64,000 bases of DNA from Rhododendron vialii (Eukaryota > Streptophyta > Magnoliopsida > Ericales > Ericaceae). How positions within the stretch are numbered: position 1 is the first letter of the stretch; each line of letters begins with the position of its first letter. The DNA is taken from contig NC_080557.1 of NCBI RefSeq assembly GCF_030253575.1, forward strand, positions 6,009,001-6,073,000, written 5' to 3'. The translations under genes and the position numbers were made by a program. Positions 16,878-52,525 of the stretch are shown here, piece by piece. The notes below the pieces were generated by a model. That model made no database searches and was not told the origin of the DNA. It was given only the letters and a program-made list of their open reading frames with translations.

Positions 16878-17875
16878 TTGATCGCACCCATTCGGTAGTC
16901 GTTGAAGTTTACCAAACGACCGACAAATTCAAATATTTATAAACCGGACTATGACTAAAGATTTGCATAGTATAGCGAGAAAGTCCGAGTCGAACCACAG
17001 GGGGCTCGAATATAGCTTGTTCGGATTGGAGGTGTAAGGGTTTTCGGCGTTTAGACGGCCAACTTTTGATTTTGCTTTGAAAGGTGGAAGAACACTCTTA
17101 AGAAGAGACTAAGTTTTGAGTTTTTGCTAAGAATTAAAAGCTGCAAGTCCTATAAGTTCTTAACACCAGAAACTTAAGCCAATTAACTTTTTCCAATGAA
17201 AACTCAGTTGAATCACATGACATAGGTTATCAACTGGAAGATTTAGCGGTGAAAATGGTTAGATTTGACATAGAGTTTGAATAACAAGCTAAATACAAGG
17301 CATGACATCGCTCCCGGAACCATGTGTGCAGGCACATGATCACCGGAGATTAATATTGACAAGCTTTGTTACATAAAAGGGCGAACTACTCACATTTACA
17401 AACCAAACCTCAAGTCTTAAGTTGAGAAGAGCACAATTAACCTAAATCACAAGGTATCAATCACCCCATGGCCGAGCCTAAACGACTACTCATACATAAT
17501 GAAAAGACTAGAAAGAATGGTAAATATTGAAAACATGATTAACCGATAGAACCGGAAATAAACTTGATATTATAAGGATCAAGTCCGTAGCTACAACATT
17601 AATAAACGACTAATACTTACTTGAGTTCTTGAAGTAAATTACTAGGAAAGCTTGAAAACATTAATGAAGTCTTCAAAACTTAAAGTGTAAAAATGAGCTA
17701 GCTCTACTAAGGGGGAGAGAGAGGGGTATTTATACAACTCAGCATTTTCTCTCCACAAAATATCATTGAACTTGCCAAAAGTGGCAAGTATTCCATAAAT
17801 GGAAAGTCCAAAAAATAGTAAAAATATCTGCAGGAGACCAATGTTATCGATACCTATCAATAAAGGTATCGATAA

Positions 17876-19465
17876 TGATGCAGGCCAATATTTTGATTAT
17901 TCTAGAAATATAGAAATCTTAATTTATTATTTTGAGTTTAGCATTTACGTAGGAATATTTTATTTTAGTCAAGATAATTTGTAAGTATTCAGTTTTCCTA
18001 GTTTGATTTGATCTAGTATTCCTATTTTGAATAGGTTTCTTGGTCAAGAAAAATTAGGATTGATTTTATTTCCTTATGTTTATTTTCCTTTTTAGATTTT
18101 AATTAAGAAAGTTAGGTTTAGGAATTCTGTTAGTATAAATAAGGTTGTAAGCCTTAGGGCTAAAGAGTGGTTTTATGAATTATTAATGAAAATTTGAGAA
18201 GTTTTCTCAATAATGTTTGTTCGTAGAGACAGTATCTCTAGTTCAAATTTATTCATGATTGTCCTTGTTGTGCGTTCTTCTTTTTCAACACGCCTCCCTG
18301 CATCAGTTGGTATCAGAGTCTGCGCTCGATTCCGGATCATGGAGCGACAAGGAGTTCGTTATGGTCGTTATGCTGCTGCTGAAGATATGTATGAACAAAG
18401 TAAAGCTGCACTAGAAGCACGAATGGAGGCGCGGTTCCAACAACTTGAGCAGCGTGTGATAGATGCGATTGGCATCCTAACCAATCAGGTGGTTGCATGG
18501 CTGTTGGGGGGAACCCACCTCGCCGTCGTCCAGTTCAACCACAGTTTCCAAAAGAGGAGGAGATGTCGGATGATATTTCTATCACCAAACCTTTGGCTAG
18601 TAACCATCAGTCGAGGGGGAGGACAAAAGTGGATGAAACTACCATCGAGTGGCCATTCACTTCAAATATTATTCCAGATCCAATAGTGAATTGGAATAAG
18701 CCACCAGTTTTTGACGAAAAACCAGTGGAAAAAATTCCAAAAAAAGAAAATCTGAAAATATTGCAAAAAGAAGAAGTTACAAAGTTGGCGTTGTTGGAAA
18801 CTGAATTTATAGATCCGTTTTGGGAGTTTATTGAATATACTATATGCAAGCGTCCTTGGGTTTCGATCCGGGAGGAAGGTACATTTGTTTTATTGATGGA
18901 AATTATTTTCTCACAATTTTCAGATTGTTGTTTACAGTTTGGGTTAAAAAAATAAATTTGAAGTATAAGATTGACGCAGACAAGTTTAGGCGAATTCAAC
19001 TCTATAAACTCGAGAACGAGTTTTTTCAACGGGGTAGGATGATGCAGGCCGATATTTTGATTATTCTAGAAATATAGGAATCTTAATTTATTATTTTGAG
19101 TTTAGCATTTTAGTAGGAATATTTTATTTTAGTCAAGATAATTTATAAGTATTCAGTTTTCCTAGTTTGATTTGATCTAGTATTCCTATTTTGAATAGGT
19201 TTCTCGGTCAAGAAAAATTAGAATTGATTTTATTTCCTTATGTTTATTTTCCTTTTTAGATTTTAAGAAAGTTAGGTTTAGAAATTCTATTAGTATAAAT
19301 AAGGTTGTAAGCCTTAGGGCTAAAGAGTGGTTTTATGAATTATTAATGAAAATTTTAAAAGTTTTCTCAATAACGTTTGTTCGTAGAGAGAGTATCTCTA
19401 GTTCAAATTTATTCGTGATTGTCCTTGTTACGCGTTCTTCTTTTTCAACACGCCTCCCTGCATCA
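17876..19465 (+). mobile_element. Deletion-derived LTR retrotransposon with gag remnant
   Basis: LTRs 17876-18305 (430 bp) and 19040-19465 (426 bp) begin TGATGCAGG and end CTGCATCA; the flanking duplication is GATAA (17871-17875 and 19466-19470). The initiator tRNA-Met primer-binding site TGGTATCAGAGT is at 18308-18319, and a purine tract ggggtagga precedes the right LTR. The 734-bp interior starts like Ty3/gypsy gag (ATG at 18339; EARMEARFQQLEQRV), shifts frame near 18,500 to GGNPPRRRPVQPQF, and stops by about 18955. No pol is present. The LTRs differ by about 4%. TATAAATA lies at 18134-18141 and 19294-19301. Confidence 0.92.
18339..18955 (+). pseudogene. Ty3/gypsy gag N-terminal remnant
   Basis: The first frame from 18339 encodes a short coiled-coil-like start (AALEARMEARFQQLEQRV). 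The continuation lies in another frame from about 18497 (MAVGGNPPRRRPVQ), so a frameshift separates them. The usual gag core and zinc knuckle are absent. It is typical of internal deletion derivatives that move in trans. Confidence 0.65.
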
Positions 19466-19679
19466 GATAACATCCTTCAAATATTCCCCCGGAGAAGCAA
19501 GTTATCGATAACTCCAACCAAATGTTATCGATACCCTTAGGTCTGGACAACTTCTGGACTAAAAAGGGACAAATGGTATCAATACCATTGAGAATGTTAT
19601 CGATAACATTCTTCAAAACTGCAGATTTCAGGTTGGCTTCAGCTTCAGCAAACAGCTCCCAGCAACTTCACAGCTCATC

Positions 19680-20008
19680 AGCAACTTCAAAGATTTCTAA
19701 GAAACAGCTGCACCACCAAGTATAAAGACATACCCATAAGTGGATTTCGAGTCCTTCATATCTGATATTCAGTTCGCATCACAATACCCTTCTAATACTG
19801 CTGGATATCTAGTGTAGTGCAGCCCCAACTCATAAGTATATCTTAAATAATGCAGAACCCTAACTATTGCCTTCCAGTGATCATGTCCTGGATTACTTGT
19901 GTATCTACTCAATCTGCTAACTGAGTAAGTTATATCGGGCCTTGTACCACTCATCAAGTACATCATACTCTCAATTATTCGAGAATACTCTAATTGAGAT
20001 ACATCTCC

Positions 20009-20042
<34 letters not shown>

Positions 20043-20599: not shown

Positions 20600-20636
<37 letters not shown>

Positions 20637-21379: not shown

Positions 21380-21441
21380 TTTTGAAGAGAGGGAGATTCT
21401 AGCTGCTCAACAGGAGTGTAGCAACCTTAAAGCTCCGGGGC

Positions 21442-22594
21442 CCGGACGGCTTTAATTTCTCCTTTGTGAAGCATGGCTGGGGGTTTATGAAGGGTTTGGT
21501 CATGCAATTCTTCTCTGAATTTCACTCTATCGGTAAACTTACAAAAGGTATCAACTCGACTTTCGTTGCTTTGATTCCTAAGGTAGACTGTCCTGTGTCG
21601 TTCAAAGAATTTAGGCCCATCAGCATGGTTGGTTGGGTGTATAAGGTGCTCTCCAAAGTGCTTGCCAATAGAATTAAAGCTCTCCTGCCATCGGTTATTG
21701 GCGAATCTCAAGCTGCATTTATCGGGGGAAAACAAATTTTGGATGGTGTTCTCATTGCAAATGAGGTTATACACAGCTGGAAAAATAGTTCTCATGGGGG
21801 GTTACTTCTCAAAATTGATTTCGAAAGGGCTTATGACTGTGTCAATTGGGGTTTTTTACTGGACCTTCTTGCAAAAATGGGCTTCGGAGCAAAATGGTGT
21901 GCCTGGATAAAGGAGTGCATATCCTCAGTTTCTATGTCAGTACTAATTAATGGATCAGCATCCAAGGAATTTCAGCTCCAGAGAGGTATTAGACAAGGCG
22001 ACCCGTTATCCCCATTTCTGTTTAATATTGTGGTTGAGGGTCTTAACATTCTATTGGAGAGAGCTAGGGATCGGAACATCATTTCAGGAGCAAGAATAGG
22101 GGTCAATGGGGTTGTGGTGTCCCACCTTCAGTTTGCGGATGATACGATTCTTTTCTGTAACAATAATCTGGAGGAGCTGAGTAACATCAAAAGAATCCTT
22201 AGATGCTTTCAGCTTATGTCAGGACTGAAAATTAATTATTCCAAAAGCTCTTTATGTGGTGTTAAAGTTCCCCATCAGGATGTGCTATTCTTGGCGCAGG
22301 TTATGGGGTGTAAAGTGGAAAGGTTGCCGATCAAGTATTTGGGTTTGCCGTTGGGTGCTAACCCCAATAGGATTAAAACTTGGGATCCCGTAGTGGAGAA
22401 GATGGAAGAGAGATTAAGTGTGTGGCGTGGTAGATACAACTCTTCTGGGGGTAAACTTACCTTGATCAATTCTTCTCTTGCCAACCAACCCATTTATTTT
22501 ATGTCCATTTTCAAACTGCCGGTGACTGTAGCAAAAGTAATAGAGAAAATTCAACGGAAATTTTTTTGGGGTGACACAATTGATAAGAGAAAAC
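21442..22594 (+). pseudogene. LINE ORF2, reverse transcriptase part
   Basis: Non-LTR reverse transcriptase: STFVALIPKV, FRPISMVGWVYKVLSKVLA, GGLLLKIDFERAYDCVNW, QRGIRQGDPLSPFLFNIV, the active site HLQFADDTILFC, and KYLGLPLGAN. A single extra G at about 21441, in the codons for the conserved KAPGPDG, shifts the frame, so the region upstream (EILAAQQECSN) is out of frame. The endonuclease domain is missing. The frame is cut at 22594 by the LTR insertion. Confidence 0.85.
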
Positions 22595-24454
22595 TGTCAC
22601 GTCCTCGATTTTAAACATAATTATAAATGATTTACATAATAAAAATACTCACAAATATCCGTACGGTACCCAAAAGATCACTGTGTTCTCATTTCCTTAG
22701 TTAAGCTTCCAAATTCACAAAGTTTCCAAAATATTACAATATAGGCTCAACGGCCCCAAATCAACATAAGTATCAAATGTCGAAAGAGGATTAAGGGTTA
22801 CAATATTCCAAATCAAAAGAATTACAATTTAAGTTACGAATACATCTTTCAAAATAAATTTACAACGATGAATAAGTAACTCCTTCGGTTAGCTTTCAAA
22901 AATAATGACCACACTCCAAGCACGCCAAGCAATGCAAGCTAGGGTTCCGGGTTAGCACCTGAAAATAATATAAGGCTTGAGCTACACTAGCCCAGTAGAA
23001 AAGTCTACGCAAACTCTATATGCAAATGAGCGAGACGAATGAACAAATGATAAAAGATCACAAGACAACGGAGGAAGCACAACTTTCATGAACAAGTGTC
23101 CCAAAATCTCCAAATTTTCTTTTATTCAACCCATAAATCATATCCGTTCAAATCGTGTCTCAACATGTCGTGTCATTTATGTGTCTGAGCCGAAGCTCCT
23201 GCCGGGCTAATTTTGGGACCCCGATATCCCCTGCCAAGCACCCACCTTGAAGGTTAGGCCTTGAAAAATTATTATGAGCATAAGCTCCTGCCAGGCTAAT
23301 TATGGGACCCTGAAATCCCCTGCCAGGCACCCACCCGTCGATGGGCCCTGAATGTTCGCGCGTCGTTCACAAGTTCAAGTGTATCGTTCGTACAAATATT
23401 GTGCAAGAGGCCCATATTTACCATTTCAAGAATTTCACAAATACGGACATATCCAAGTTGGATAACTCAATGATCCTGACATCATGCATTTACCCAAGCC
23501 ATCATCATATATAATAAACAAATCATTGTAGCCCCTGGAAAGGCATTTAGGCTTGGAAAAGAAAAGTGGAACGGTACAGGAGAAGTTTTGCTTTTCACTG
23601 GTGGTCTACCGGTAGGGAACATGGAGCTACCGGTAGGAATTGTAAACAGTGGGTGCAAGTTTCAGCTGGTAAGAGTTCTACCGGTAGAGATAAAAATACT
23701 ACCGGTAGGTGGGAAAAAAATTAACAATCCTACCGGTAGGGAATAAGTCCTACCGGTACAAATGCAAAACAGAAAGGCCACCATTTTTGCACGAGGAAAA
23801 ATCTGAGACAGGCTACCGGTAGGAGAAAAGTTCTACCGGTAGGAAGCTAATTTTTCTAGCAACACAACAGCGTTCTACCGGTATAACGGACGGGCCTACC
23901 GGTAGGAATCCAGAATTTGACGATTTTTCATCAGATAACAGATTTTGATCCAGACCAAACAACAATCAATATCAGCTCAAACAAAGCATGGAAATACTCA
24001 AACAAGACATAAGAGAACCCAAATAACATATAAAGAGAGGTAGAATTTCCTACCTCGAGTATCCAAACCGAAATCAAGGAGATTGTGCAAACCCTAGCTT
24101 CCGGAGTCCAAATCAAGCAACAATACACCGAACCAAGCTTTGTCCAACGCGATACAAGCTCGAATATACTAGTAGACGATGGAGTTAAGCTTGATTGTTG
24201 TGAGTTTTGAGTGATTGGGTGAGAGAGTGAGAGACTTAGAGGAGAAATGGAGAGAGAGCTGAGAAGAAGAAAATGGGAAAAAAAGAAAAAGTTCTCCTGG
24301 TATACACGGCACACACACACATGCACAAATCACACAAACACCCATGGCTTTCAAGTTCTCACACTTTGACCCCCAACTCTAATATTTTCATTAATCCATC
24401 ACTTTTCCATTTATAAAACAATAAAATTATAAAATGAATTTACGGGTCTCTACA
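22595..24454 (-). repeat. 3' LTR of the Tekay-type element
   Basis: This LTR holds a cluster of CTACCGGTAG palindromes (23606-23905), a duplicated ~90-bp segment (agctcctgcc...cacccacc at about 23194-23259 and 23286-23340) and a CT-rich tract on the minus strand near 24200-24290. Short minus-strand frames inside it (for example 23931-24326) are low-complexity and repeated in the other LTR, so they are not treated as genes. Confidence 0.95.
23606..23905. promoter_or_regulatory. Cluster of ten helically phased CTACCGGTAG palindromes
   Basis: Ten copies (eight exact, two with one altered end base) start at 23606, 23627, 23678, 23699, 23730, 23750, 23813, 23833, 23875 and 23896. The steps are 21, 51, 21, 31, 20, 63, 20, 42 and 21 bp: five pairs about 20-21 bp apart, with every step close to a whole number of 10.4-bp helical turns. 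The 5' LTR has the same cluster at 30709-31008. Confidence 0.9.
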
Positions 24455-24470
24455 TCCTACCCTCCTTAAA
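24455..24470 (-). other. Polypurine tract of the Tekay-type element
   Basis: Minus strand AAGGAGGGTAGGA directly upstream of the 3' LTR. It primes plus-strand DNA synthesis. Confidence 0.85.
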
Positions 24471-24605
24471 GAAATTTCGTCCTCGAAATTTTTCATGCCA
24501 AAACTAGTTAACACATATATCACCTATGCATGCAAAACCTCAATCACCAATATTATGCAACATGTTAAACATTAAAATACTTCAATCTCGGATACTCACG
24601 TTGGG

Positions 24606-27600
24606 TTACTCTGGGAATAAATGTGGATACTTCTCTCTAACCTCATCTTCTCGTTCCCAAGTTTGATCCTCGCTATCCTGACTTCTCCATAAGACTCGTA
24701 CTAACGGTATCGTCTTACCCCTCAACACTTGATCGCGCGAATCTAGGATACGGACCGGTTCTTCCCCATAAGACGCATCGGCCTCTAACTCGAGTTCGGA
24801 CCATTCCAACACATGCGACGGATCAGGTTCGTACTTTCTCAACATAGACACGTGAAACACATCATGAACACCCGATAGCCTCGGTGGTAAAGCCAAACGA
24901 TACGCAACCTCCCCAATCTTTTCAATAATGTCGAACGGCCCGATGTAACGCGGCGATAGCTTTCCCTTTTTCCCAAAACGAGACAAACCTCTACGTGGCG
25001 ATACTTTGAGGAATACATGATCCCCTTCTTCAAATGACAACGGGCGACGACGACGATCGGCATAATTCTTTTGTCGGCTTTGCGCGGTTAACAATCTTTG
25101 GCGAATCACCTTCACTTGTTCAGTCGTTCTCTCTTGAGCTTCTTTAAGGCGTTGACGAATTACTTTCAAGCTCTCGGAGGTCTCCTTAATCATGTCCGGT
25201 CCTACAAGCGTAGCCTCTCCCAATTCGGTCCAACACACAGGCGATCGACACGGTCTTCCATACAAAGCCTCATACGGTGCCATTTCGATACTAGATTGAT
25301 AGCTATTGTTGTACGCGAACTCAACTAATGGCAAGTGGTCCTCCCAACTACCCCGGAAATCCATCACACAAGCCCGAAGCATGTCTTCCAAAATATGAAT
25401 CGTTCTCTCGGATTGCCCATCGGTTTGAGGATGATACGCGGTACTAAATAGAAGATTAGTGCCCAAAGCAGCTTGTAAACTCTGCCAAAAACGTGCGGTA
25501 AATCTCGGATCTCGATCGGACACGATGGACACGGGAATCCCATGAAGTCGAATGATCTCTCGAATATACAAACGGCTAAGCGCATCAACGGAATCGGTGA
25601 CCTGAATGGGTAGGAAATGAGCGGTTTTAGTCAAACGGTCCACAACTACCCAAATAGCATCATGCCCCCTTGGCGATCTCGGTAAACCTGTAACGAAATC
25701 CATGGTCACATGCTCCCACTTCCACTCGGCCACTGGTAATGGTTGCAATTCCCCCGCGGGTCGTTGATGTTCGGCTTTCACTTGTTGGCACGTGAGACAC
25801 TTGGACACGAAAATCACAACGTCCCTCTTCATTCCGGACCACCAAAATTGTCTACGCAAATCATGATACATTTTCGTTCCTCCCGGGTGAACGGCTAACG
25901 GAGAATGATGAAACTCTCGTAAGATTTCTTCCCGACACGAAATGGGTACGAACAACTTTCCTTGATAGCGCAAGCTTCGGTCGGCGTGAATCATCCACCC
26001 TTCTTGAGCGTTTCCACTAAGGAATCTAGTACGGAGTTCCTCTGCTTCCTCATCATGTTGCTGGGCCTCAATCACTCTCGTCGATAAAGTCGATTGTACC
26101 GTCAAGTTGCATAACGTGACCCCTTCCCGAACTCCCTCAAAGTGCATGGCGTAGGAGCCCAAGTCGTTCATTGCTTTCCACTCATGAATCGCTAGGCTCG
26201 CTAGATGTGTCGGTTTTCTACTCAATGCGTCAGCCACAACGTTCGCTTTCCCCGGGTGGTATTGTAATTCAAAGTCATAATCCTCCAAATGCTCCATCCA
26301 ACGGCGTTGACGAAGGTTAAGTTCCTTTTGAGAGAATAAATATTTCAAACTTTTATGATCGGAAAAGACTTCAAACTTCTCACCATACAAGTAATGACGC
26401 CAACTTTTCAAAGCAAATACGACGGCTGCAAGTTCTAGATCGTGTGTCGGGTAATTCCGCTCATGTGTTTTCAACTGTCGTGACCCATACGCTACCACTC
26501 GTCCCGCCTGCATCAACACGCATCCCAACCCTTCCTTAGACGCGTCACAATACACAGAGTAGCCAACTCCACGGTCGGGCACAATCAAAACCGGCGCGGT
26601 AGTCAATCGCTTCTTTAACTCCTCAAAGGCTGTCTCACACGAGTCACTCCAAACGAATCGGGTCCCCTTACGTGTCAATCTAGTCAGTGGTGCCGCTAAA
26701 CGAGAGAAGTCTAAAACGAAACGGCGGTAGTACCCAGCCAAACCCAAGAAGCTTCGAATCTCGAATACGTTCTTTGGTCGCTGCCAATTCATAATCGACT
26801 CTATCTTTCCGGGATCAACAGACACTCCACCCTTCGAAACCACGTGGCCTAAGAATTTAACTTCGGATAACCAAAACTCACACTTACTAAGTTTAGCGTA
26901 TAGCTGGTGCTCTCTCAAGAGTTCAAGAACAATGGTGAGATGGGCTTGGTGTTCCTCCTCCGTAGGCGAATAGATCAAAATATCATCCACAAAGACGACG
27001 ACGAAGCGATCAAGATAAGCACGAAAAATACGATTCATCAAGTCCATGAATGTAGCTGGAGCGTTCGTCAGTCCGAAAGGCATAACAACGAACTCATAGT
27101 GGCCATAACGAGTGCGGAAAGCGGTTTTAGGGATGTCCTCTCTACGAACCCTCAATTGGTGATAACCGGACCTCAAGTCGATTTTAGAAAAACAAGTGGC
27201 ACCCCGAAGTTGGTCGAACAAATCATCGATTCTAGGCATGGGATACTTGTTCTTAATGGTGACTCGGTTTAGCTTACGGTAGTCAATACACAAACGGAGT
27301 GAACCATCCTTCTTTTGCGCAAAAAGAGCCGGTGCTCCCCACGGAGACGTACTTGGACGAATGAATCCTAGGTTCTCCAGTTCTTGTAACTGAGTCTTTA
27401 GCTCTCTCAATTCGGCGGGTGCGAAACGATATGGAGGTACGGAGATAGGAGCGGTACCGGGAAGTAGATCAATGGTGAACTCAATCTCTCGCTCGGGAGG
27501 TAAACCAGGTAACTCTTCCGGGAATACATCCGGAAAGTCGCAAACCACTAAGGGTAACTCCCCACGCATGAAGGCATCCTCATCTAACGTCAAACTCGCC

Positions 27601-29441
27601 AACAATGAATAAACCGACCCTAGCTCACGAGGCCCACATAAATAAGGTTCCAATGGTTCTCGACGCTCCCCAAAGAATTCGAAGCAAGGACCTTCGGGTG
27701 GACAAATACGAACTCGACGCTTAAAACAATCGATGGTAGCATGAAATTTGGATAGCCAATCCATTCCCAAGATAAGATCAAACCCCGACATTCCTAAAAC
27801 GATGAAGTCGAACATGAAACGACAATCACGGATAACCAACTCACATTCTCGACAAATACGGTCAAGAGGTGTTCTACCCCCTAGAGGTGTTTCGACAAAC
27901 AAAGGAGGACTAATAGTTTCCGATTCCAATTCCAAAGTACACACAAATGATGCAGCAATGAAAGAATGCGATGCTCCAGAATCAAAGAGTACTTTAGCAA
28001 ATGAGTTGAACAAAAGAAAAGTACCCCTCACAACAGAAGTTTCCGGAACCTGAGAAGTGGTAGGTGGGATAGCAGAAGTGATGTTGAAAACTCGCCCCTG
28101 GGTACCCTGACCCTGCACAAAACCCCCTCTCTGACCAGAACCCTGAGCAGGCGCGGAAGAACTCGCTCCCTTGTCAACCCCGGAACTCTGAGCTGACGTA
28201 GTCTGACGAAAGTAAGGCTGCTGCTGCCTCTGAGTACCCCTAAACGGCTGGCCCACATTACGCCCCGTTCCCGGCTGCTGCACAGAACCTGACTCACTGC
28301 GCGCTCCCGACCCTTGAGGACAACTCCTTGCGAAATGATCCGTTTTACCACAAATATAACAAGTTTCCCCGAGGCGTGGACACTGAGCACGAACGTGTCC
28401 AGGTTGATTACACTTAAAACACACAGGCAAAGGCTTAGACAGAACACCCCGAGCCCCCAAAGAAGAAGGCGGCCTAAAGTTCGACGAACTACCCTGCGGT
28501 GTCTGAGATGGTTCCCTTGCCCTTTTCCTCCCTTGGCTTCCAAAGCTCCCCGATGAAGAACTCGTGTTCACGGTTGGTTGTCGTGGTTCCCAAACCCCTC
28601 TATTACGTTGCGCCTCTTTCGGTATCTCAATGCTCCTCGCACACTCAACTACCTCGGCGTATTTTGTCTTGCGTTGTACCATTACCATCCTCCTTACGGT
28701 GTTGTGCAGTCCTTTCTCAAAGCGTCTACATTTCCTCTCTTCCGTCGCCACCAACTCTGGCGCAAAGCGAGATAAAGATTGGAATTTTTGTGCGTACTCC
28801 GACACGGTCATGCTTCCTTGCTCTAACTTTTCGAATTGGTCCCTCAATTGGTCACGGCTAGTTTCTGGAAAATACTGCTCCTCAAATAACGCCTCAAATT
28901 CAGCCCATGTCAAATTCTCAACATCTGGCTCATCTATTTGAGCTGCGGTCCTTGCCGCTCTCCTTGCATCTTTCCTACTTTCAAGAACGGATTCCCACCA
29001 TTCACCGGCCTCCCCAACTAGTTGCACCGCCACGATACCTACCCTGATGTTATCTTCTGTGATATTGAGAGCTCTAAAAAGCTTACGAATCTGAGCTAGC
29101 CAATGGTCCGCCACCAAAGGGTCGCTACTAGTCCCATCGAACACTGGAGGGTTTCTACGGCTAAACTCTCGCATCGCCACGATAGCTCGATCCTCAACAT
29201 TCTCCCTAGGTGCTTGGTTTAGAAGATTTGCAGCTGTAAGTGCTGCGACGAGATCCCTAGCAAACTGATTTTGAGCTTGAGGTACTCCTGCACCTCGACC
29301 GATCCCAGCCCCCAAATTCCCACCTGGGTTCTCCCCATGCTGACTAACCTCGTCCTCAAGAGGTACCCCACGGCCACGACCACGGCCTCGACCACCCCGG
29401 GTCCCAGCCCCAACTCGTCTGACACGGGTCTTCGGAGGCAT
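24606..29441 (-). CDS. Gag-pol polyprotein, Tekay-type chromovirus
   Basis: An uninterrupted frame of 1,611 codons from the ATG at 29441 ([11 protein letters not shown]); an ATG 36 bases upstream is also in frame. Using numbering from the upstream ATG: gag core about 100-300; two CCHC zinc knuckles near 355-395 ([28 protein letters not shown]); aspartic protease with DSGASHSF near 497; reverse transcriptase with FVDDILIYS near 830; RNase H with YCDASKEG near 977; integrase with [16 protein letters not shown] and SDRDPRF near 1190-1330; C-terminal chromodomain-like [19 protein letters not shown] near 1597. All catalytic motifs are intact. The product forms virus-like particles, copies the RNA and inserts the cDNA; the chromodomain probably directs integration to particular chromatin. 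Confidence 0.95.
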
Positions 29442-29682
29442 CTTACTACATGATATACAAAAGAAACTATTAACCACAACATTAAAACTACGGGGTTGAA
29501 GCCCTCAACTTCGCAACACGGGTTAATAGCTCTACACCACTCTACGATAATGAAAAATGCAATGCCACGTAATCACATGAATGTTAGTCACACAAGCATG
29601 CACAAGTTATGTTAGAAGGCGCGACATTTTGAACCCATGAGACAAAACGTCTCCCCACGGTCTCTAGGTGTTCTAAACCTAT

Positions 29683-29694: not shown

Positions 29695-29697
29695 AGT

Positions 29698-31557
29698 TGT
29701 CACGTCCTCGATTTTAAACATAATTATAAATGATTTACATAATAAAAATACTCACAAATATCCGTACGGTACCCAAAAGATCACTGTGTTCTCATTTCCT
29801 TAGTTAAGCTTCCAAATTCACAAAGTTTCCAAAATATTACAATATAGGCTCAACGGCCCCAAATCAACATAAGTATCAAATGTCGAAAGAGGATTAAGGG
29901 TTACAATATTCCAAATCAAAAGAATTACAATTTAAGTTACGAATACATCTTTCAAAATAAATTTACAACGATGAATAAGTAACTCCTTCGGTTAGCTTTC
30001 AAAAATAATGACCACACTCCAAGCACGCCAAGCAATGCAAGCTAGGGTTCCGGGTTAGCACCTGAAAATAATATAAGGCTTGAGCTACACTAGCCCAGTA
30101 GAAAAGTCTACGCAAACTCTATATGCAAATGAGCGAGACGAATGAACAAATGATAAAAGATCACAAGACAACGGAGGAAGCACAACTTTCATGAACAAGT
30201 GTCCCAAAATCTCCAAATTTTCTTTTATTCAACCCATAAATCATATCCGTTCAAATCGTGTCTCAACATGTCGTGTCATTTATGTGTCTGAGCCGAAGCT
30301 CCTGCCGGGCTAATTTTGGGACCCCGATATCCCCTGCCAAGCACCCACCTTGAAGGTTAGGCCTTGAAAAATTATTATGAGCATAAGCTCCTGCCAGGCT
30401 AATTATGGGACCCTGAAATCCCCTGCCAGGCACCCACCCGTCGATGGGCCCTGAATGTTCGCGCGTCGTTCACAAGTTCAAGTGTATCGTTCGTACAAAT
30501 ATTGTGCAAGAGGCCCATATTTACCATTTCAAGAATTTCACAAATACGGACATATCCAAGTTGGATAACTCAATGATCCTGACATCATGCATTTACCCAA
30601 GCCATCATCATATATAATAAACAAATCATTGTAGCCCCTGGAAAGGCATTTAGGCTTGGAAAAGAAAAGTGGAACGGTACAGGAGAAGTTTTGCTTTTCA
30701 CTGGTGGTCTACCGGTAGGGAACATGGAGCTACCGGTAGGAATTGTAAACAGTGGGTGCAAGTTTCAGCTGGTAAGAGTTCTACCGGTAGAGATAAAAAT
30801 ACTACCGGTAGGTGGGAAAAAAATTAACAATCCTACCGGTAGGGAATAAGTCCTACCGGTACAAATGCAAAACAGAAAGGCCACCATTTTTGCACGAGGA
30901 AAAATCTGAGACAGGCTACCGGTAGGAGAAAAGTTCTACCGGTAGGAAGCTAATTTTTCTAGCAACACAACAGCGTTCTACCGGTATAACGGACGGGCCT
31001 ACCGGTAGGAATCCAGAATTTGACGATTTTTCATCAGATAACAGATTTTGATCCAGACCAAACAACAATCAATATCAGCTCAAACAAAGCATGGAAATAC
31101 TCAAACAAGACATAAGAGAACCCAAATAACATATAAAGAGAGGTAGAATTTCCTACCTCGAGTATCCAAACCGAAATCAAGGAGATTGTGCAAACCCTAG
31201 CTTCCGGAGTCCAAATCAAGCAACAATACACCGAACCAAGCTTTGTCCAACGCGATACAAGCTCGAATATACTAGTAGACGATGGAGTTAAGCTTGATTG
31301 TTGTGAGTTTTGAGTGATTGGGTGAGAGAGTGAGAGACTTAGAGGAGAAATGGAGAGAGAGCTGAGAAGAAGAAAATGGGAAAAAAAGAAAAAGTTCTCC
31401 TGGTATACACGGCACACACACACATGCACAAATCACACAAACACCCATGGCTTTCAAGTTCTCACACTTTGACCCCCAACTCTAATATTTTCATTAATCC
31501 ATCACTTTTCCATTTATAAAACAATAAAATTATAAAATGAATTTACGGGTCTCTACA
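29698..31557 (-). repeat. 5' LTR of the Tekay-type element
   Basis: Same length and content as the left LTR. On the element's strand the palindrome cluster (31008 down to 30709) precedes a possible TATA-like stretch (ttattatatatga near 30605-30620); the true start site is uncertain because another A/T-rich stretch lies near the LTR start. Confidence 0.95.
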
Positions 31558-31562
31558 AAAAC

Positions 31563-38856: not shown

Positions 38857-39742
38857 TGCTTCTGTTCGCTCCGATGTAATGGAATAACACCCCAAGCGTA
38901 GGGCCTAAAACGTTTGTTGAAGCATAATAAACCGGAAATCCGGGATCGTACCCAAGGGAATAATTATATGGCTTGCTCGGATTTGTAGATGGAAGTACGG
39001 GCTTTCGGCTTTAAGACAGCCAACTTTGTTTTACTTTAACGGTGGTAATAAAAGGGCTAAATTAAAAGGAAATTAACTAGAGAAAAGATAGGTTAGGTCT
39101 AAGAATTATTAACACCCAAGACCCGAGCTAAATCACACTCGTCACCAAATTATACAATTCAAGATACTCGGTTAAAGTTCTCAAATCGGAAAATAAAATA
39201 ATTTGAGAATCAAGCTAGCTCTAGAATTCATTTGGCAAATACCTCGTGCGAAAGAGCTCTAAGCATCATGTGTGGTGGGTAGGCGAAGCTCCCACCTACA
39301 CATGATCAAAGAGGTTAACACCTCGGTGATTTGACAAACAAATCCGAACCCCACATCAATTTTCAAATCAAAGTTTAAAGCTTTATTGGGTGCAAAATGC
39401 AATTTTCGCCCGAGCCATGAGATGCTAATCATCCCATGACCTAACCCTTGAAACTACTCACTCATATCTAGAGAGATAAAAGCAAGTGAAAAACTACTTG
39501 ACATAATTGAAATAACAAGACTAGAAGAAAATTAGAGATTAAGATAGATCGGGAGAAGATAAACAACTTTAATAAAGGAGACAATAACAAAAAGTAACAA
39601 CTAAGGGCAGAAAATTAAAAGTTAAGAGCTGGAAAAATGAAGAACAACAAGAACACTCAAGAACAATTTGAATCTAGATCTAGATCTAAAAATTAGGTAA
39701 GCAAATCTAAGTCTACCCACTTTTTTAAAACAATGAAATAAG

Positions 39743-39750
39743 CTTTTATA
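39743..39750 (-). promoter_or_regulatory. TATA box in the Athila LTR
   Basis: TATAAAAG on the minus strand; the active copy would be at 51935-51942 in the 5' LTR. Transcription probably starts about 30 bp downstream, that is at lower coordinates. Confidence 0.65.
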
Positions 39751-39809
39751 CTTCTAAGCTCCGCGCCTGGAATATTCCCTAGATGCTCCGAAAATCCCAT
39801 GCAAAGCCC

Positions 39810-40032
39810 CTCGGCATCGATGGCAACGGCCTTAGCATGCCCTGCTATGGGGCTCGGCATTGATGTAAATAATTGGAGTCCATCGATGCCGAGGTCGTTA
39901 ACGGCCTAAACAATTAAGCTGCTCGGCAGCGATGTAACATGGATCTCTCCATCGATGCCGAGGGGGATAAGAGTCTTGATCACTAAGGGGCTCGGCATCG
40001 ATGGGACTTATCGCTTGACATCGATGCCGAGG
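39810..40032. promoter_or_regulatory. Paired ATCGAT-core palindrome array, period 69 bp
   Basis: Cores are centred at 39818.5, 39861.5, 39884.5, 39930.5, 39953.5, 39999.5 and 40022.5. Each of the last three pairs is ctcggca(t/g)(c/t)gatg facing catcgatgccgag, 23 bp apart, and pairs repeat every 69 bp. The copy in the 5' LTR is at 52002-52224. The cluster lies upstream of the TATA box on the element's strand. Confidence 0.85.
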
Positions 40033-40333
40033 TCGTTAACTCGTCGCTTGGCTGCCTCTCTCTGCCTCTTGCTCGGGCAAGTCTTGTTTTGCTCGGGCGA
40101 AACTTCTTCTGCCTTGGCCATTTCTGGTTCTGCTCGGGCGAAACAACTTCTGCTCGGGCTGTTTCCACCTTGACATGCCTTAGGCCTCAAAGACTCCTTT
40201 ATTTGGCGATTTATCTACAAAACATAACCAAAGCACTATACGAGCAAACACGTTAATAATAACTAATAAGTAATTAAATTAGACTAAAACTAGTTACTAG
40301 CGCACCCTTTATTACATTCTCGGGTGCTTATCA

Positions 40334-42372: not shown

Positions 42373-42825
42373 TGAAAACTAAAAGGGATTTTTTTGGTTT
42401 TTATTTTGTAATTTTCGGATTTTTGAGGGATTTTCTACGGTTTTTGATTTTTTTGGTGGAAATGGGTGAATGTAGGGTCAAAATATAGTGGGGGGTGGAT
42501 ATGTAAGTGAAAGATAGGAAAAAGTTAGGGATTTATGTGGAAAAAGAAGAAAATTTTCGGATTTGAAAAGGGGAAATTGGGTTTACCTTATTTTCGGCTT
42601 AAAACTTGAAATTGATGGAGAAAAGCTTGAGTGTTCTTGAGGGAGATGGAGGATTTGGGAGTTTTCTGTGGAAATATGGGGGATTTGGTGGTGGATTGGA
42701 AGTTTAGGTCTAGGGTTTAAGTGGTTTAATGGAGAGAAGAAGAGGGAAAATCGGGTTCAGAAGATTGAGAGTGGTTTTCCTTTGGTTTCTGACGTGATCA
42801 GCACTGATCTGCCGCTGATATTGAG
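42373..42825 (-). promoter_or_regulatory. Possible leader and promoter region of the Athila 3' ORF
   Basis: Read on the minus strand, the ~450 bp before the ATG are pyrimidine-rich and contain aaaccctag, a motif common in plant 5' leaders, and a donor-like aaggtaaac. Upstream of it lies the palindrome array at 42828-43005. An internal promoter is an inference; no canonical TATA was found. Confidence 0.35.
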
Positions 42826-42827
42826 CT

Positions 42828-43005
42828 CGGCAGCGATGTAATATTTGAGCTTCCATCGATGCCGAAGCTGATAACTGTTTAGGGAGATAAGCTGCTCGGC
42901 AGCGATGTAATTTCTAAGCTTCCATCGATGCCGAAGCTAAAAACGACCCCCCCTGTGGAACCTCCTTGACATCGATAGAACTTTCTGAATCCCATCGATG
43001 CCGAA
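42828..43005. promoter_or_regulatory. Internal copy of the paired palindrome array
   Basis: AGCGAT/ATCGAT cores are centred at 42834.5, 42857.5, 42903.5, 42926.5, 42973.5 and 42996.5: steps of 23, 46, 23, 47 and 23 bp, the same architecture as in the LTR. The flanks (gctcggcagcgatg, catcgatgccgaag) also match the LTR motifs. Confidence 0.85.
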
Positions 43006-47154: not shown

Positions 47155-47160
47155 ATTCTT

Positions 47161-48276
47161 CTATTCACATCTTGTTAGAACTTTCTCTAAATTAGCCAAG
47201 CATGAATCAAATGAATCGCCAAAAACAGAGAAATCATCCATAAAAACCTCTACTATCTTCTCAACCATATCACTAAAAATCCCCATCATGCATCGTGAAA
47301 AAGTCCCCGGAGCATTGCACAAACCGAAAGGCATACGACGATAAGCGAACGTTTCGAAGGGGCAAGTGAATGTCGTTTTCTCTTGATCCTCTAAAGCAAC
47401 TTCAATTTGATTGTAACCGGAATAACCATCTAAGAAACAATAGAATGCATGACCGGCTATCCTTTCCAAGATCTGATCAATGAATGGTAAGGGAAAGTGA
47501 TCCTTTCTGGTACTTGCGTTGAGCTTGCGATAATCGATACAAACTCTCCATCCAGTCTGAACTCGAGTAGGTACGAGCTCATTCTCCTCATTTCGCACAA
47601 CTGTAACTCCGGATTTCTTTGGTACAACTTGAATTGGGCTCACCCATTTACTATCAGCGATAGGATAAATGATTCCAACATCCAAGAGCTTTAAAACTTC
47701 AGCACGAACTACATCCTTCATGATCGGGTTCAAACGCCGTTGAGGTTGACGAGACAGCTGGACATTATCCTCCAAAGCAATATGATGCGAGCAAAGAGTA
47801 GCATCAATCCCTTTGATATCAGCAATTGTCCATCCTATAGCCTTCATGTGCCGCCTTAGAGAATTGATCAACTTCATCTCTTGGAGATTCCCAAGAGAGG
47901 AGGAAATAACCACAGGATAAGTCTCGTTATCTCCAAGAAAAACGTACTTCAAAGTATCAAGAAGGGGCTTCAACTCCAATTTTGGTGGCTCAACACTAGA
48001 TGGGAGAACCTTCTTCTCAATTGGTGGAAGCTCCTCAAACACTTCAAACTTTGGAGTCCAAGAATTTATAGCGCAAGCTTCATCTTCCTCTCCAAGCAAT
48101 GAGCTCAAATAACTCACTTCAGAAGACTCAAGAAATTCATCCTTTTCAGTCGTAAGAGCAACTTCCAAAGGATCACTGAAAAGCAATTCATCCACGTGTT
48201 CTTCTACAAGAGTATCGATAAGGCTCACTTCATTCACGTACTTCATCTCCCATTTGGCTACCCACATTAAAAACAT
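47161..48276 (-). pseudogene. Athila pol: reverse transcriptase N-terminal half
   Basis: This open stretch contains [34 protein letters not shown] and the active site VFMDDFSVFG. It ends at a TAG just after LANLEKVLTRCE. At its 5' edge it overlaps the protease frame in another reading frame, so a small insertion or deletion near 48,235-48,245 caused a frameshift. Confidence 0.88.
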
Positions 48277-49213
48277 TGACCTCCATCTTCATGTTACCGA
48301 AGGTCATATTGAGGAGTCCATTTCGACAATTAATAACTGCATCCGCCGTGGCTAAGAAGGGTCTTCCAAGAATCACCGGAGTAGAAGCAGCAGAAGAGTC
48401 GATCGGATTGGTATCGAGAATCACAAAATCCACCGGATAAACGAATTGGCCAACTTGCACTAAAACATCTTCTACTACTCCCCTCGGTGTACGAACGCTT
48501 CGATCGGCTAATTGGAGAGTGACACGGGTAGGCTTCATCTCCCCCAACCCAAGTTCTTGATAAACAGAAAACGGAAGCAGGTTAACACTTGCACCAAGAT
48601 CAAGTAAAGCTTGTTCGATACGCTTCTCTCCAATGGTTACAGCGATAGTAGGGCTCCCCGGATCCTTGTACTTTGGCGCGATATTCGTTTGGATGATAGA
48701 ACTCACTTGCTCAGTAAGGAATATCTTCTTTTGAACATTAAGCTTGCGCTTCCGGGTACACAAATCTTTAAGAAACTTGGCATATGACGGAATCTGCTTA
48801 ATTGCATCCATAAGAGGAATGTTAATCTTCACTTGATTGAACAACTCATGCAACTCCTCATTCAAATTTGGTTTCGCCAAAGCCCTTAAACGACTAGGAA
48901 ACGGTGCCGGTGTTGGAATAACTCGAGGATCCGGTACACTTTGTTCCTTCGCTTTGCCTTTATCCTTTCCTTCTTCTTCAACAAGAGTCTCCTTACTTGC
49001 TTCCTTGGGAGATTCCCCAAAGATTGGAATTGAACGTTCGTTAGGAGGAGGCAAGTAAGATGGTTCCGGAGGCATCACCACTTGGTTATCAACTATCTTC
49101 CCACTCCGAAGAGAAATAATAGCCTTTGCTTGCTCGGGGAAAGTCACCGAAGAGCTAGCAAAGTGAAGACCTTGAGAAGTAGGATTGGAATTCGGTTGCG
49201 GATTAGGTTGAGG
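48230..49213 (-). pseudogene. Athila protease region
   Basis: This follows gag in the same frame after one TAA. It contains the aspartic protease motif LLDLGASVNLLP and VILGRPFLATADAVINC. The frame closes at 48230 shortly after VNVFNVGSQMGDE because of the frameshift described for the RT part. Confidence 0.85.
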
Positions 49214-50557
49214 TTAAGTAGGAAACTTCCCTTTCTCCTGTTGTAACAAACCCACCGTAGTTGTCAACTTGCCCAACTGGTTTCTGATGTCATTCATCAT
49301 TTGAGTTTGTTGCTCATTGATAGCTGTTTGGCCTTGCAAGAGAGCACTAAATTGATCTTCCCAAGAACGCTTTGGTGGTTGTTGGTGGAACTGAGCAGGT
49401 TGTTGTTGAAATTGGTTCGCATGTGGGAACGAAGCAGAAGGAGCAAAACCAGGCGGACCTTGAGCTTGAGGGAAATGGAAAGCATTCTGAGGTTGCTTCC
49501 AAGGCAATTGAGGAGCGGGCGGTGGAGCTTGAGAAGAACCCCCCTCATTAGATTGATTCCAACGGAAAGCTGGATGTTGTCTTGTCCCCGAATTATAAGA
49601 TTGAGAATAAGGGTCAAAGCGTTGGACAGCTTGTACTTCTTTTGGAGCAATCCCATTAATCACATTTTTCAAAGCAGGAACATTGGGGCACGCTTCTGTA
49701 GAATGGCCCACAATCTCACAAATAACACACACTTCTTCCACTTGGCGCACTACTTTCACTTCTTGAGATTGAGCACTCTTAAGCTCCAATTTGTCAAGTT
49801 TCCGAGCAATCTCCTCCAAACGAGTTTCAAAAGCTGTATGCTCTGCAATAGAGAACTTACCTGAACCTGTAGGACCTTGATTGAACATTGCTCTATCTCC
49901 CGGATCTGCAAACTGCCAAGACTGAGTCTTCTCAGCTAGTGACTCATAGTAATCCCATGCATCCTCCGGTGTCTTCCCCATAAAATCACCGCCACCCATA
50001 GTATCCAGAAGCTGTTTACTCTCTTGAGAACACCCTGTGTAGAAATAGTTGACTCTGAGATACAACGGAAGGTTGTGATGAGGAACCGACATAAGCAAGT
50101 CCTTGTAACGCTCCCAATACTTGTGGTAAGTCTCTCCATCCCTTTGCTTGAAACATTGAATCTGATCGATAAGTAATTTTGTCCTGCTGGCCGGAAAGAA
50201 CTTAGTAGTGAAAGCATCCTGAACTTCTCCCCAGTTGCGCAAAGATTGTGCCTTCAAAGAATTGAACCATTGTTTTGCTTTGTCTTTGAGAGTGAATGGG
50301 AACAACTTCAGACGAGCTTGATCAAGTTGCCCCGGAACTGTAACAAACGAGTGCAGAATATTCTCGAACTCCCGGATATGCAAATACGGATCCTCCAATT
50401 CTCTCCCCCGAAACTCTGGAATAATACGAAGATACTCAGCCTTGAATTCAAATGTATTCCCAGCGGTTGGAATCGGAATAACGATAGGAGATACTTGAGG
50501 AGCCCGTTCTGGATTCAGATAATCGCGCAAAGTACGAACTGGAACTTCTTCGGCCAT
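49214..50557 (-). CDS. Athila gag
   Basis: Capsid protein of 447 codons from the likely start at 50557 (MAEEVPVRTLRDYLN); the frame is open for 46 more codons upstream. The capsid core includes FPFTLKDKAKQWFNSL and FFPASRTKLLIDQI; a single CCHC zinc knuckle CVICEIVGHSTEAC follows, then a Q/P-rich tail. It ends in TAA, after which the same frame continues directly into protease. This may be a loss-of-function C-to-T change or a natural gag-pol boundary needing readthrough; the sequence cannot decide. Confidence 0.88.
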   Translation of the reverse strand: MAEEVPVRTLRDYLNPERAPQVSPIVIPIPTAGNTFEFKAEYLRIIPEFRGRELEDPYLHIREFENILHSFVTVPGQLDQARLKLFPFTLKDKAKQWFNSLKAQSLRNWGEVQDAFTTKFFPASRTKLLIDQIQCFKQRDGETYHKYWERYKDLLMSVPHHNLPLYLRVNYFYTGCSQESKQLLDTMGGGDFMGKTPEDAWDYYESLAEKTQSWQFADPGDRAMFNQGPTGSGKFSIAEHTAFETRLEEIARKLDKLELKSAQSQEVKVVRQVEEVCVICEIVGHSTEACPNVPALKNVINGIAPKEVQAVQRFDPYSQSYNSGTRQHPAFRWNQSNEGGSSQAPPPAPQLPWKQPQNAFHFPQAQGPPGFAPSASFPHANQFQQQPAQFHQQPPKRSWEDQFSALLQGQTAINEQQTQMMNDIRNQLGKLTTTVGLLQQEKGKFPT

Positions 50558-51026
50558 TGGGCCTTTGCAATTGCGATTTAATTTGCGAGGCGGAGAGTGG
50601 GCAGGATACGCCCTGGCAATGCTACGGATTCTTCGCGGTGAAGAAGAACGATGAAGCCGATTTGAAATTGGGCTCCGGTAAACACGCATACACAAGCAAA
50701 TATACTAACTAACTACCAACAAAAGGGGCCATCCCGCCACCTCAACTCAACAAACAGAATATGCGAGGGGTTATGCCACCACCTCGGCTAAGCGATGCAA
50801 TCAAATTTAAGCTAACTAACTAAATTAATTATGCTAAACTAACTAAGAAACAAATTCAATATTTAGCCTGGCTTCGTTACACCTCAAGTTTAGATGAACT
50901 AGGTTAGAGGTATCCACCAAACTAAATACGAACTACTAACACATAAACTATTAAACTACTACTACTAGACGAAAGCGGGATACTTACAGTGGTTTGTCGA
51001 ACCTCCAAGAAAGCCATAATAAGAAA

Positions 51027-51044
51027 TCCCCGGCAACGGCGCCA
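51027..51044 (-). other. Primer-binding site (tRNA-Asp), Athila
   Basis: TGGCGCCGTTGCCGGGGA on the minus strand, four bases inside the 5' LTR. It matches the tRNA-Asp primer usual in Athila/Tat elements. Confidence 0.9.
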
Positions 51045-51048
51045 AAAA

Positions 51049-52525
51049 TGCTTCTGTTCGCTCCGATGTAATGGAATAACGCCCCAAGCGTAGGGCCTAA
51101 AACGTCTGTTGAAGCATAATAAACCGGAAATCCGGGATCGTACCCAAGGGAATAATTATATGGCTTGCTCGGATTTGTAGATGGAAGTACGGGCTTTCGG
51201 CTTTAAGACAGCCAACTTTGTTTTACTTTAACGGTGGTAATAAAAGGGCTAAATTAAAAGGAAATTAACTAGAGAAAAGATAGGTTAGGTCTAGGAATTA
51301 TTAACACCCAAGACCCGAGCTAAATCACACTCGTCACCCAATTACACAATTCAAGATACTCGGTTAAAGTTCTCAAATCGGAAAATAAAATAATTTGAGA
51401 ATCAAGCTAGCTCTAGAATTCATTTGGCAAATACCTCGTGCGAAAGAGCTCTAAGCATCATGTGTGGTGGGTAGGCGAAGCTCCCACCTACACATGATCA
51501 AAGAGGTTAACACCTCGGTGATTTGACAAACAAATCCGAACCCCACATCAATTTTCAAATCAAAGTTTAAAGCTTTATTGGGTGCAAAATGCAATTTTCG
51601 CCCGAGCCATGAGATGCTAATCATCCCATGACCTAACCCTTGAAACTACTCACTCATATCTAGAGAGATAAAAGCAAGTGAAAAACTACTTGACATAATT
51701 GAAATAACAAGACTAGAAGAAAATTAGAGATTAAGATAGATCGGGAGAAGATAAACAACTTTAATAAAGGAGACAATAACAAAAAGTAACAACTAAGGGC
51801 AGAAAATTAAAAGTTAAGAGCTGGAAAAATGAAGAACAACAAGAACACTCAAGAACAATTTGAATCTAGATCTAGATCTAAAAATTAGGTAAGCAAATCT
51901 AAGTCTACCCACTTTTTTAAAACAATGAAATAAGCTTTTATACTTCTAAGCTCCGCGCCTGGAATATTCCCTAGATGCTCCGAAAATCCCATGCTAAGCC
52001 CCTCGGCATCGATGGCAACGGCCTTAGCATGCCCTGCTATGGGGCTCGGCATTGATGTAAATAATTGGAGTCCATCGATGCCGAGGTCGTTAACGGCCTA
52101 AACAATTAAGCTGCTCGGCAGCGATGTAACATGGATCTCTCCATCGATGCCGAGGGGGATAAGAGTCTTGATCACTAAGCGGCTCGGCATTGATGGGACT
52201 TATCGCTTGACATCGATGCCGAGGTCGTTAACTCGTCGCTTGGCTGCCTCTCTCTGCCTCTTGCTCGGGCAAGTCTTGTTTTGCTCGGGCGAAACTTCTT
52301 CTGCCTTGGCCATTTCTGGTTCTGCTCGGGCGAAACAACTTCTGCTCGGGCTGTTTCCACCTTGACATGCCTTAGGCCTCAAAGACTCCTTTATTTGGCG
52401 ATTTATCTACAAAACATAACCAAAGCACTATACGAGCAAACACGTTAATAATAACTAATAAGTAATTAAATTAGACTAAAACTAGATACTAGCGCACCCT
52501 TTATTACATTCTCGGGTGCTTATCA
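51049..52525 (-). repeat. 5' LTR of Athila
   Basis: Same length as the 3' LTR, about nine substitutions. Palindrome array at 52002-52224 and TATA at 51935-51942 (minus strand). Confidence 0.95.

What the first reader, a model, noticed from the sequence alone, without database searches (positions are those of the whole stretch)
17845..52224. The same paired-palindrome architecture recurs in three LTR families with different motifs
The Tekay-type LTR (CTACCGGTAG, pairs 20-21 bp), the intact Athila LTR (ctcggcatcgatg facing catcgatgccgag, pairs 23 bp, period 69) and the Athila relic (TATCGATA-like, pairs 21-23 bp, pair steps about 63 and 74) each hold 3-5 palindrome pairs. In the two Athila types the cluster lies just upstream of a TATA box. 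Tekay and Athila are distinct Ty3/gypsy lineages, so either convergence on one regulatory design or exchange of LTR modules is implied. I know of no described system with this layout.
Basis: partly seen in the sequence, partly recalled or inferred. Interest (0 to 1): 0.85.

Follow-up and report, generated by a model that had tools for sequence, protein, structure and literature searches.

The report
Helically phased palindrome arrays in retrotransposons
Two distantly related groups of plant jumping genes carry arrays of short mirror-image DNA sites set mostly at whole turns of the double helix, and one such array appears to have passed between the groups.

Summary
In the window, apart from an (AT)n run, exact same-palindrome (8-bp) pairs at 20-23 bp occur only in the three LTR types. 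Genome-wide, pairs with a 5-20 bp gap number 2610, 3161 and 684, against 0, 13 and 4 for the reversed motifs, themselves palindromes. Between Tekay copies palindromes are 97% identical, spacers 76%. CTACCGGTAG and TATCGATA steps cluster near multiples of 10.4 bp: 21, 31, 41, 52, 62; the intact Athila (23/46/69) does not fit. "Three motifs" are two cores, ATCGAT and ACCGGT. TATCGATA arrays also occur in Tekay LTRs, and spacers in two Tekay loci match Athila spacers but are 10 bp shorter. So array exchange, not only convergence, is supported. Most likely these are cis-regulatory DNA sites for dimeric host factors (inferred). A close precedent exists: Sirevirus palindromic repeats upstream of the TATA box and before ENV (PMC2829016). 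A new variant of a known kind; the factor is unknown.

The parts
22595..24454 (-). Tekay-type 3' LTR (1860 bp)
   Evidence: 100% identical to 29698-31557; TSD AAAAC on both sides
29698..31557 (-). Tekay-type 5' LTR, starts TGTAGAGACCCG
   Evidence: PBS TGGTATCAGAGC adjacent at 29683-29694
24606..29504 (-). Tekay gag-pol open frame: gag, protease, RVT, RNaseH, integrase zinc-binding domain; integrase core and Chromo matches below their cut-offs
23606..23905 (.). Tekay palindrome array, 10 sites CTACCGGTAG in five pairs (steps in + direction 21,51,21,31,20,63,20,42,21)
30709..31008 (.). same array in the Tekay 5' LTR (LTR positions 550-849)
30610..30617 (-). TATA-like stretch downstream of the Tekay array (candidate only)
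   Evidence: A/T-rich near the same alignment columns in L001 and L031 but not conserved
31298..31393 (-). CT-rich leader-like tract upstream of the Tekay array (LTR positions 165-260); a rival place for the transcription start
   Evidence: read by eye
38857..40333 (-). intact Athila 3' LTR
   Evidence: 99.4% identical to 51049-52525; PPT GTTGGGGGGTG adjacent, TSD TGTAT
51049..52525 (-). intact Athila 5' LTR
   Evidence: PBS TTGGCGCCGTTGCCGGGGA adjacent
39810..40031 (.). Athila LTR array, CATCGATG-type sites with outer CTCGG/CCGAG arms, steps 43,23,46,23,46,23
52002..52223 (.). same array in the Athila 5' LTR; one site (52188) differs from the 3' LTR by C/T at the central CpG
51937..51942 (-). 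TATAAA box downstream of the Athila 5' LTR array
42826..43005 (.). second, internal Athila array: CATCGATG-type pairs 23 bp apart, period 69-70, between pol and the third ORF
42373..42825 (-). CT-rich leader with splice-donor-like AATAAG|GTAAAC between internal array and third ORF
   Evidence: read by eye; same arrangement in L042
41152..42378 (-). Athila third ORF, PF20167 (putative plant transposon protein)
   Evidence: E 4.1e-15
17845..17874 (.). relic Athila array, left part (TATCGATA pair, 22 bp)
19503..19605 (.). relic Athila array, right part (steps 23, 51, 21)
17876..19465 (+). small LTR element nested inside the relic array, TSD GATAA
17728..17734 (-). TATAAAT box downstream of the relic array, followed by a CT-rich tract

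Best explanation
The arrays are cis-regulatory DNA modules. Each palindrome is a binding site for a symmetric (dimeric) protein, most likely a host transcription or chromatin factor. Two sites about two helical turns apart bind a pair of dimers side by side, and further pairs follow mostly at whole turns, so that bound dimers share one face of the helix. Athila elements use the array twice: upstream of the LTR TATA box and before the third ORF, probably as an internal promoter. The motif can change (ACCGGT core or ATCGAT core) while the layout stays, and arrays have passed between Tekay and Athila LTRs. Shown by computation: sites, spacing, conservation, second array, cross-lineage spacer similarity. 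Inferred: protein binding, promoter function, the direction and mechanism of exchange.
For: Genome counts 2610/3161/684 against 0/13/4 for the reversed palindromes; wider gaps 2145 against 35 (TATCGATA) and 1904 against 0 (CTACCGGTAG). First-listed places, all on contig 1: CTACCGGTAG 61 of 65 at 20-21 bp; TATCGATA 49 of 50 at 20-23; CATCGATG 49 of 50 at exactly 23, with varied spacers. TATCGATA in the range 29-58 bp: 50 of 50 at 40-43 or 51-54; 46 of 50 lie within 1.5 bp of n x 10.4, as 9 of the 30 possible distances do; CTACCGGTAG 40 of 58. Periodicity of 43 steps over 25 bp, identical step patterns merged: best R 0.806 at 10.55 (0.795 at 10.4), reached by 0 of 5000 random sets; 19 distinct values alone peak at 10.40. 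Palindromes identical at 486 of 500 compared positions, no gaps, spacers at 749 of 989 with 25 gapped, over five pairwise comparisons of four copies. TATA motif 63-148 bp downstream in 6 of 10 TATCGATA loci, and in intact Athila and relic. Internal arrays before a third ORF in two Athila-type loci. Tekay locus L048, joined to Tekay internal sequence (1000 columns, 77.6%), and L049 carry TATCGATA arrays that match Athila arrays with palindromes masked: scores 38-49 against shuffle maxima 23-29.
Against: Intact Athila-type spacing (23, and 66-69 between pairs) is out of phase with 10.4 bp. 18 of 58 CTACCGGTAG distances are out of phase, and steps of 16 and 18 bp in L030, also out of phase, fell outside the test on steps over 25 bp. 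Copies are related by descent, so the statistics overstate independence. In Tekay the array may lie downstream of the transcription start. 41 of 45 Tekay-Athila comparisons score 27 or less, near their shuffle maxima. For Athila a spliced transcript has been proposed to express the ORF after pol (cited in PMC2829016), an alternative to an internal promoter. No binding, transcription or methylation data; no factor identified.
Confidence: 0.72

Rival explanations
1. The palindromes act as RNA: hairpins in the element transcript that serve packaging or dimerisation, or are diced to small RNAs by the host.
For: The three array segments tested fold better than each of their 200 shuffles (z -3.6, -5.6, -4.1). 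Work on maize Sireviruses reports excess small RNAs over palindrome clusters (Bousios 2016, as described in PMC10760457, passages seen).
Against: Steps between pairs fall near multiples of 10.4 bp in two of the three motifs, which a hairpin does not need; nor does it need exactly 23 bp with varied loops. Folding is a by-product of any palindrome.
Confidence: 0.12
2. The arrays are neutral products of tandem duplication with no function.
For: Regular 69-bp period in Athila; VANDAL motifs are known to spread by tandem duplication (PMC5735166, passages seen). In 200 kb of sampled genome palindromes are not over-represented among locally repeated 8-mers (1 of 504).
Against: Palindromes 97.2% against spacers 75.7% identical between Tekay copies, despite a central CpG; spacers within an array are mostly unlike each other while spacing holds; the motif differs in the same slot of homologous LTRs.
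Confidence: 0.05
3. An element-encoded protein (such as the Athila third-ORF product) binds its own array and counters silencing, as VANC proteins do in VANDAL elements.
For: The third ORF lies behind a matching array; motifs differ between families, as with VANC targets.
Against: The window's Tekay shows no frame of 100 aa or more between pol and the 3' LTR, yet it has the layout; the third-ORF model (mean pLDDT 70.1) has no PDB match with E at or below 0.001, best 1.0; one motif serves two lineages, which points to a host factor.
Confidence: 0.08

Closest known systems
Sirevirus repeated motifs (RM boxes; Bousios et al. 2010, PMC2829016)
   Same: Many copies of a family-specific palindrome in the upper LTR, a short way upstream of a TATA box, and in ENV-bearing elements a second cluster in front of the ORF after pol. 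Tnd-1's ACAATCGATTGT shares the ATCGAT core; Inga's AGCGGTASTACCGCT resembles the Tekay motif.
   Different: Sireviruses are Ty1/copia; here the hosts are Ty3/gypsy Tekay and Athila. In the parts I read, and in a term search of the text (helical, spacing, spaced, distance between), pairing, helical spacing of the boxes and exchange between lineages do not appear.
VANDAL/VANC target motifs (Hosaka et al. 2017, PMC5735166)
   Same: Short motifs accumulate in arrays in noncoding parts of a mobile element and differ between related elements.
   Different: VANC21 motifs lie in the same orientation, in VANDAL transposons; 'palindrom' does not occur in the text; recognised by an element-encoded protein.
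Repressor operator pairs about two turns apart (recalled; lambda-type)
   Same: Palindromic dimer sites spaced for side-by-side contact.
   Different: Bacterial and phage regulation; analogy only, no call.

Membership tests
Sirevirus RM boxes | Lies in a Ty1/copia Sirevirus | tested here: not met
   Order and kind of domains, PBS and PPT are those of Ty3/gypsy elements (that they mark Ty3/gypsy is recalled)
Sirevirus RM boxes | Many palindromic copies in the upper half of the LTR | tested here: met
   10 sites at 550-849 of 1860 (Tekay); 7 sites at 303-524 of 1477 (Athila), some degenerate. The paper gives at least eight copies per element
Sirevirus RM boxes | TATA box shortly downstream | tested here: inconclusive
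   Met for intact Athila and relic; unclear for Tekay
Sirevirus RM boxes | Extra copies before the ORF that follows pol | tested here: met
   42826-43005 and L042
Sirevirus RM boxes | CGG-CCG core | tested here: not met
   ATCGAT has none; ACCGGT has only an overlapping CCGG. Tnd-1 is also an exception in the paper
Sirevirus RM boxes | Cluster forms a CpG island | not tested
   no CpG-island prediction was run
Tekay lineage | tRNA-Met-type PBS, single gag-pol ORF, chromodomain | tested here: inconclusive
   PBS and single ORF met; Chromo 22.4 bits, below cut-off 25.1. The lineage name rests on recall, no reference tree
Athila lineage | PBS TGGCGCC type, PPT GGGGGG type, extra ORF after pol | tested here: met
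   that these mark Athila is recalled
VANC target arrays | Bound by an element-encoded anti-silencing protein | not testable with these tools
   needs binding and methylation data

The most novel reading that the evidence does not exclude
One helically phased regulatory cassette circulates among unrelated retrotransposon lineages of a genome: arrays recombine between elements, the palindrome is swapped to switch to another host dimeric factor or to escape a silencing protein, and indels are accepted mostly as whole helical turns. Plant LTRs of both superfamilies would then share a common modular enhancer grammar.
Probability: 0.3. Interest if true: 0.82.

Novelty: new variant of a known kind. 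Interest (0 to 1): 0.62.

Why it matters
Thousands of copies that keep site and spacing while spacers drift are a natural mutagenesis experiment. They give a spacing rule that can be tested directly, a way to fish out the host factor that activates or recognises these elements, and a case of regulatory DNA apparently moving between distant retrotransposon lineages.

Tried and rejected
Search for other motifs: in 20 stretches at round coordinates (200 kb, one of them half N) only TACCGGTA, among palindromes, recurs at least three times in 600 bp; it is 1 of 504 repeated 8-mers, where about 2 would be expected by the share of palindromes, so the sample shows no general excess and is too small to find further families. 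Searches for AATCGATT and GGTCGACC pairs did not complete. A first test of Tekay-Athila spacer similarity (54 comparisons) gave weak results and I leaned to convergence; L047-L049, picked because their spacers caught the eye (so not a random sample), changed that. The third-ORF protein as binder: no useful PDB match. IMG/VR: 11 contigs hold a CTACCGGTAG pair; the stretches held show no match to three Tekay protein pieces, an Athila RNaseH-integrase piece or the Tekay LTR. Literature: eight searches listed no paper that I recognised as describing palindrome arrays of this layout in Ty3/gypsy LTRs; I saw only the listed titles and abstract starts, plus passages of four papers, and most subscription journals are not held. 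Bousios 2016 is not held.
Full report
What is there. The window lies on contig 1 of a 532.6-Mb genome in 13 contigs. Of 18 protein relatives of the Athila third ORF, the 15 with names are from Rhododendron or Vaccinium, the best named one R. molle at 70%, so the host is probably an Ericaceae plant (inference). The Tekay-type element (22595-31557, minus strand) has two identical LTRs of 1860 bp, TSD AAAAC and a tRNA-Met-type PBS. The Athila-type element (38857-52525, minus strand) has LTRs of 1477 bp with 9 differences, TSD TGTAT, PBS and PPT in place. The relic array (17845-19605) is split by a 1590-bp LTR element with TSD GATAA; without the insert and one TSD copy the step is 41 bp. Lineage names follow features that I recall as typical; no reference tree was run.

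Is it more than chance? Against 1000 shuffles per segment, identical 8-bp palindromes within 320 bp number 10 in the Tekay LTR (shuffle maximum 3), 5 in the relic flanks (3), 5 and 4 in the Athila 3' and 5' LTRs (2 and 3), and 3 in the Athila internal region, which shuffles also reach (3). Exact pairs at 20-23 bp number 5, 2, 1, 0 and 0 in the same order, so the intact Athila stands out through its degenerate sites and period, not through exact pairs. In the whole window, outside an (AT)n run, exact pairs at 20-23 bp occur only in these three LTR types. Genome-wide, pairs with a gap of 5-20 bp number 2610 for CTACCGGTAG (reversed control 0), 3161 for TATCGATA (13) and 684 for CATCGATG (4). The reversed motifs are palindromes of the same composition, so this is not an effect of palindromy as such.

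Spacing. Among first-listed places, all on contig 1, CTACCGGTAG pairs are 21 bp apart in 55 of 65 cases and 20 in 6; TATCGATA 20-23 in 49 of 50; CATCGATG 23 in 49 of 50. In the range 29-58 bp, TATCGATA gives 37 of 50 at 40-43 and 13 of 50 at 51-54; CTACCGGTAG gives 40 of 58 within 1.5 bp of a multiple of 10.4, the other 18 at 29, 33, 37, 39, 50, 54 and 55, some of them sums of two shorter steps. In 24 stretches (L001, L025-L044 and three window pieces), with identical step patterns merged, the 43 steps over 25 bp have their best R, 0.806, at 10.55 bp and 0.795 at 10.4; 0 of 5000 random sets reach the former. The 19 distinct values peak at 10.40 (R 0.649). Steps of 25 bp or less, among them 16 and 18 bp, were left out of that test; all 104 steps give R 0.838 at 10.40. 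Family members share steps by descent, so the numbers overstate independence, and the CATCGATG arrays were not in that test. Those keep 23 bp within pairs and 66-69 between pairs, which does not fit 10.4. This is the main result against a universal same-face rule.

Selection. In four Tekay copies (window, L026, L031, L001), summed over five pairwise comparisons, palindromes are identical at 486 of 500 compared positions with no gaps; spacers at 749 of 989 with 25 gapped; the 250 columns downstream at 663 of 1140 with 83 gapped; the 250 upstream at 1170 of 1250. The sites were defined on the window copy only. The high upstream conservation shows that something else there is also constrained.

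Second array and promoter context. CATCGATG-type sites recur inside the Athila at 42826-43005 with the same 23-bp pairs and 69-70-bp period. They stand before the third ORF (PF20167), followed by a CT-rich leader and a splice-donor-like AATAAG|GTAAAC (by eye). Locus L042 shows the same with TATCGATA: array, CT-rich leader, ATCAAG|GTAAAC, then the start of a third-ORF homologue (67 columns at 72% to P0014, a PF20167 protein; the window's own third ORF did not reach E 1e-3 there). The array of the intact Athila LTR stands about 65 bp before a TATA box, the relic array about 111 bp. Among the ten TATCGATA loci, six (L035, L037, L038, L039, L043, L044) have a TATA motif 63-148 bp downstream with a leader-like tract (by eye); TATA words also occur on the other side in some loci, and four (L036, L040, L041, L042) show no clear case. 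In Tekay a CT-rich leader-like tract lies upstream of the array and an A/T-rich TATA-like stretch downstream, so the start is undecided. PMC2829016 cites predicted splice acceptors for the ENV-like ORF of Athila, so expression of the third ORF by splicing is a standing alternative to an internal promoter.

Motif change and exchange. L040 is a Tekay LTR (549 columns at 78% to the window LTR, plus 81 columns at 75% on the other side) that carries TATCGATA sites at 21-41-21 between these anchors, where the window's Tekay has CTACCGGTAG. L047 (787 columns at 70%, to the LTR end), L048 (joined to Tekay internal sequence, 1000 columns at 77.6%), L049 and, more weakly, L036 are Tekay-type too; L047-L049 were picked for their spacers. 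L035, L037, L038 and L043 are Athila-type: they match the relic, and L037 runs into sequence like the end of the window Athila's internal part (136 columns, 73%). With palindromes masked, L048 and L049 match L035 and the right part of the relic with scores of 38-49 against shuffle maxima of 23-29 (300 shuffles each); 2 more of the 45 comparisons barely exceed their maxima (27 against 26, 25 against 24) and the other 39 score no higher than 25. For L048 against the relic the alignment holds one 10-bp gap; the Tekay spacer is 33 nt where the two Athila spacers are 43. In one search (E at or below 1e-8) the only matches of L048 to the relic, and of L048 and L049 to L035, cover the array. This favours transfer of the array between lineages. 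A shared extra binding site in the spacer could mimic it in part. The direction is not known.

Mechanism. Symmetric sites, conserved sites with freer spacers, fixed pair distance, helical steps and placement before TATA boxes or leaders together point to DNA binding by dimeric proteins that contact each other. RNA hairpins form well (z -3.6 to -5.6) but do not explain whole-turn steps. An element-encoded binder is less likely because the window's Tekay has no third ORF of 100 aa or more and because the third-ORF model matched nothing useful. The same motif in two lineages suggests a host factor. Which one is unknown; DREF of Drosophila binds TATCGATA (recalled), a lead only.

Known or new. In 2010 palindromic repeated motifs were described in the LTRs of 13 Sirevirus elements, upstream of the TATA box, and in the nine with ENV also near ENV, mostly upstream of it (PMC2829016: abstract, passages and section 9 seen; Tnd-1, one of the 13, has no such TATA box there). 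That is the same kind of thing in the other superfamily; the paper says the classic Ty1/copia elements it compared lack it. Not found in what I read there: pairing, helical spacing, Ty3/gypsy hosts of such boxes, and exchange. My eight searches listed no other such report that I recognised.

Noticed in passing
21403-22614 and 31541-32728 (+): The Tekay element sits between two open frames that read like the halves of a LINE reverse-transcriptase gene. Domains not tested.
   Followed up: no
17876-19465: A small LTR element (LTRs about 430 bp, tRNA-Met-type PBS) inserted right beside a TATCGATA palindrome, its TSD GATAA overlapping the site; compare the title of PMC6911290 (listing only) that LTR elements often target palindromes.
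   Followed up: partly
59087-62395: Tandem array of nine copies of a roughly 367-bp satellite.
   Followed up: no
52661-53077 and 9491-10385: Inverted repeats with about 95% matching arms, one next to the Athila 5' LTR; fold-back or MITE-like.
   Followed up: no
20010-20039: A run of 30 C; possible assembly artefact. Surroundings not tested.
   Followed up: no
L040 and L035 array edges; 19619-19630: TGAAATCTGCA(G) stands at the array edge in a Tekay LTR (L040), an Athila-type LTR (L035) and the relic; possibly another shared site.
   Followed up: partly
L048, L049, L035, 19534-19577: The 41- and 51-bp steps share TCCAGA/TCTGGA words, a possible extra factor site.
   Followed up: no
L050-L060: 11 IMG/VR contigs carry CTACCGGTAG pairs 21-24 bp apart (7 at 21; four of those also share a 3005-bp step and are probably related); no match to the Tekay or Athila pieces searched; perhaps operator-like.
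   Followed up: partly
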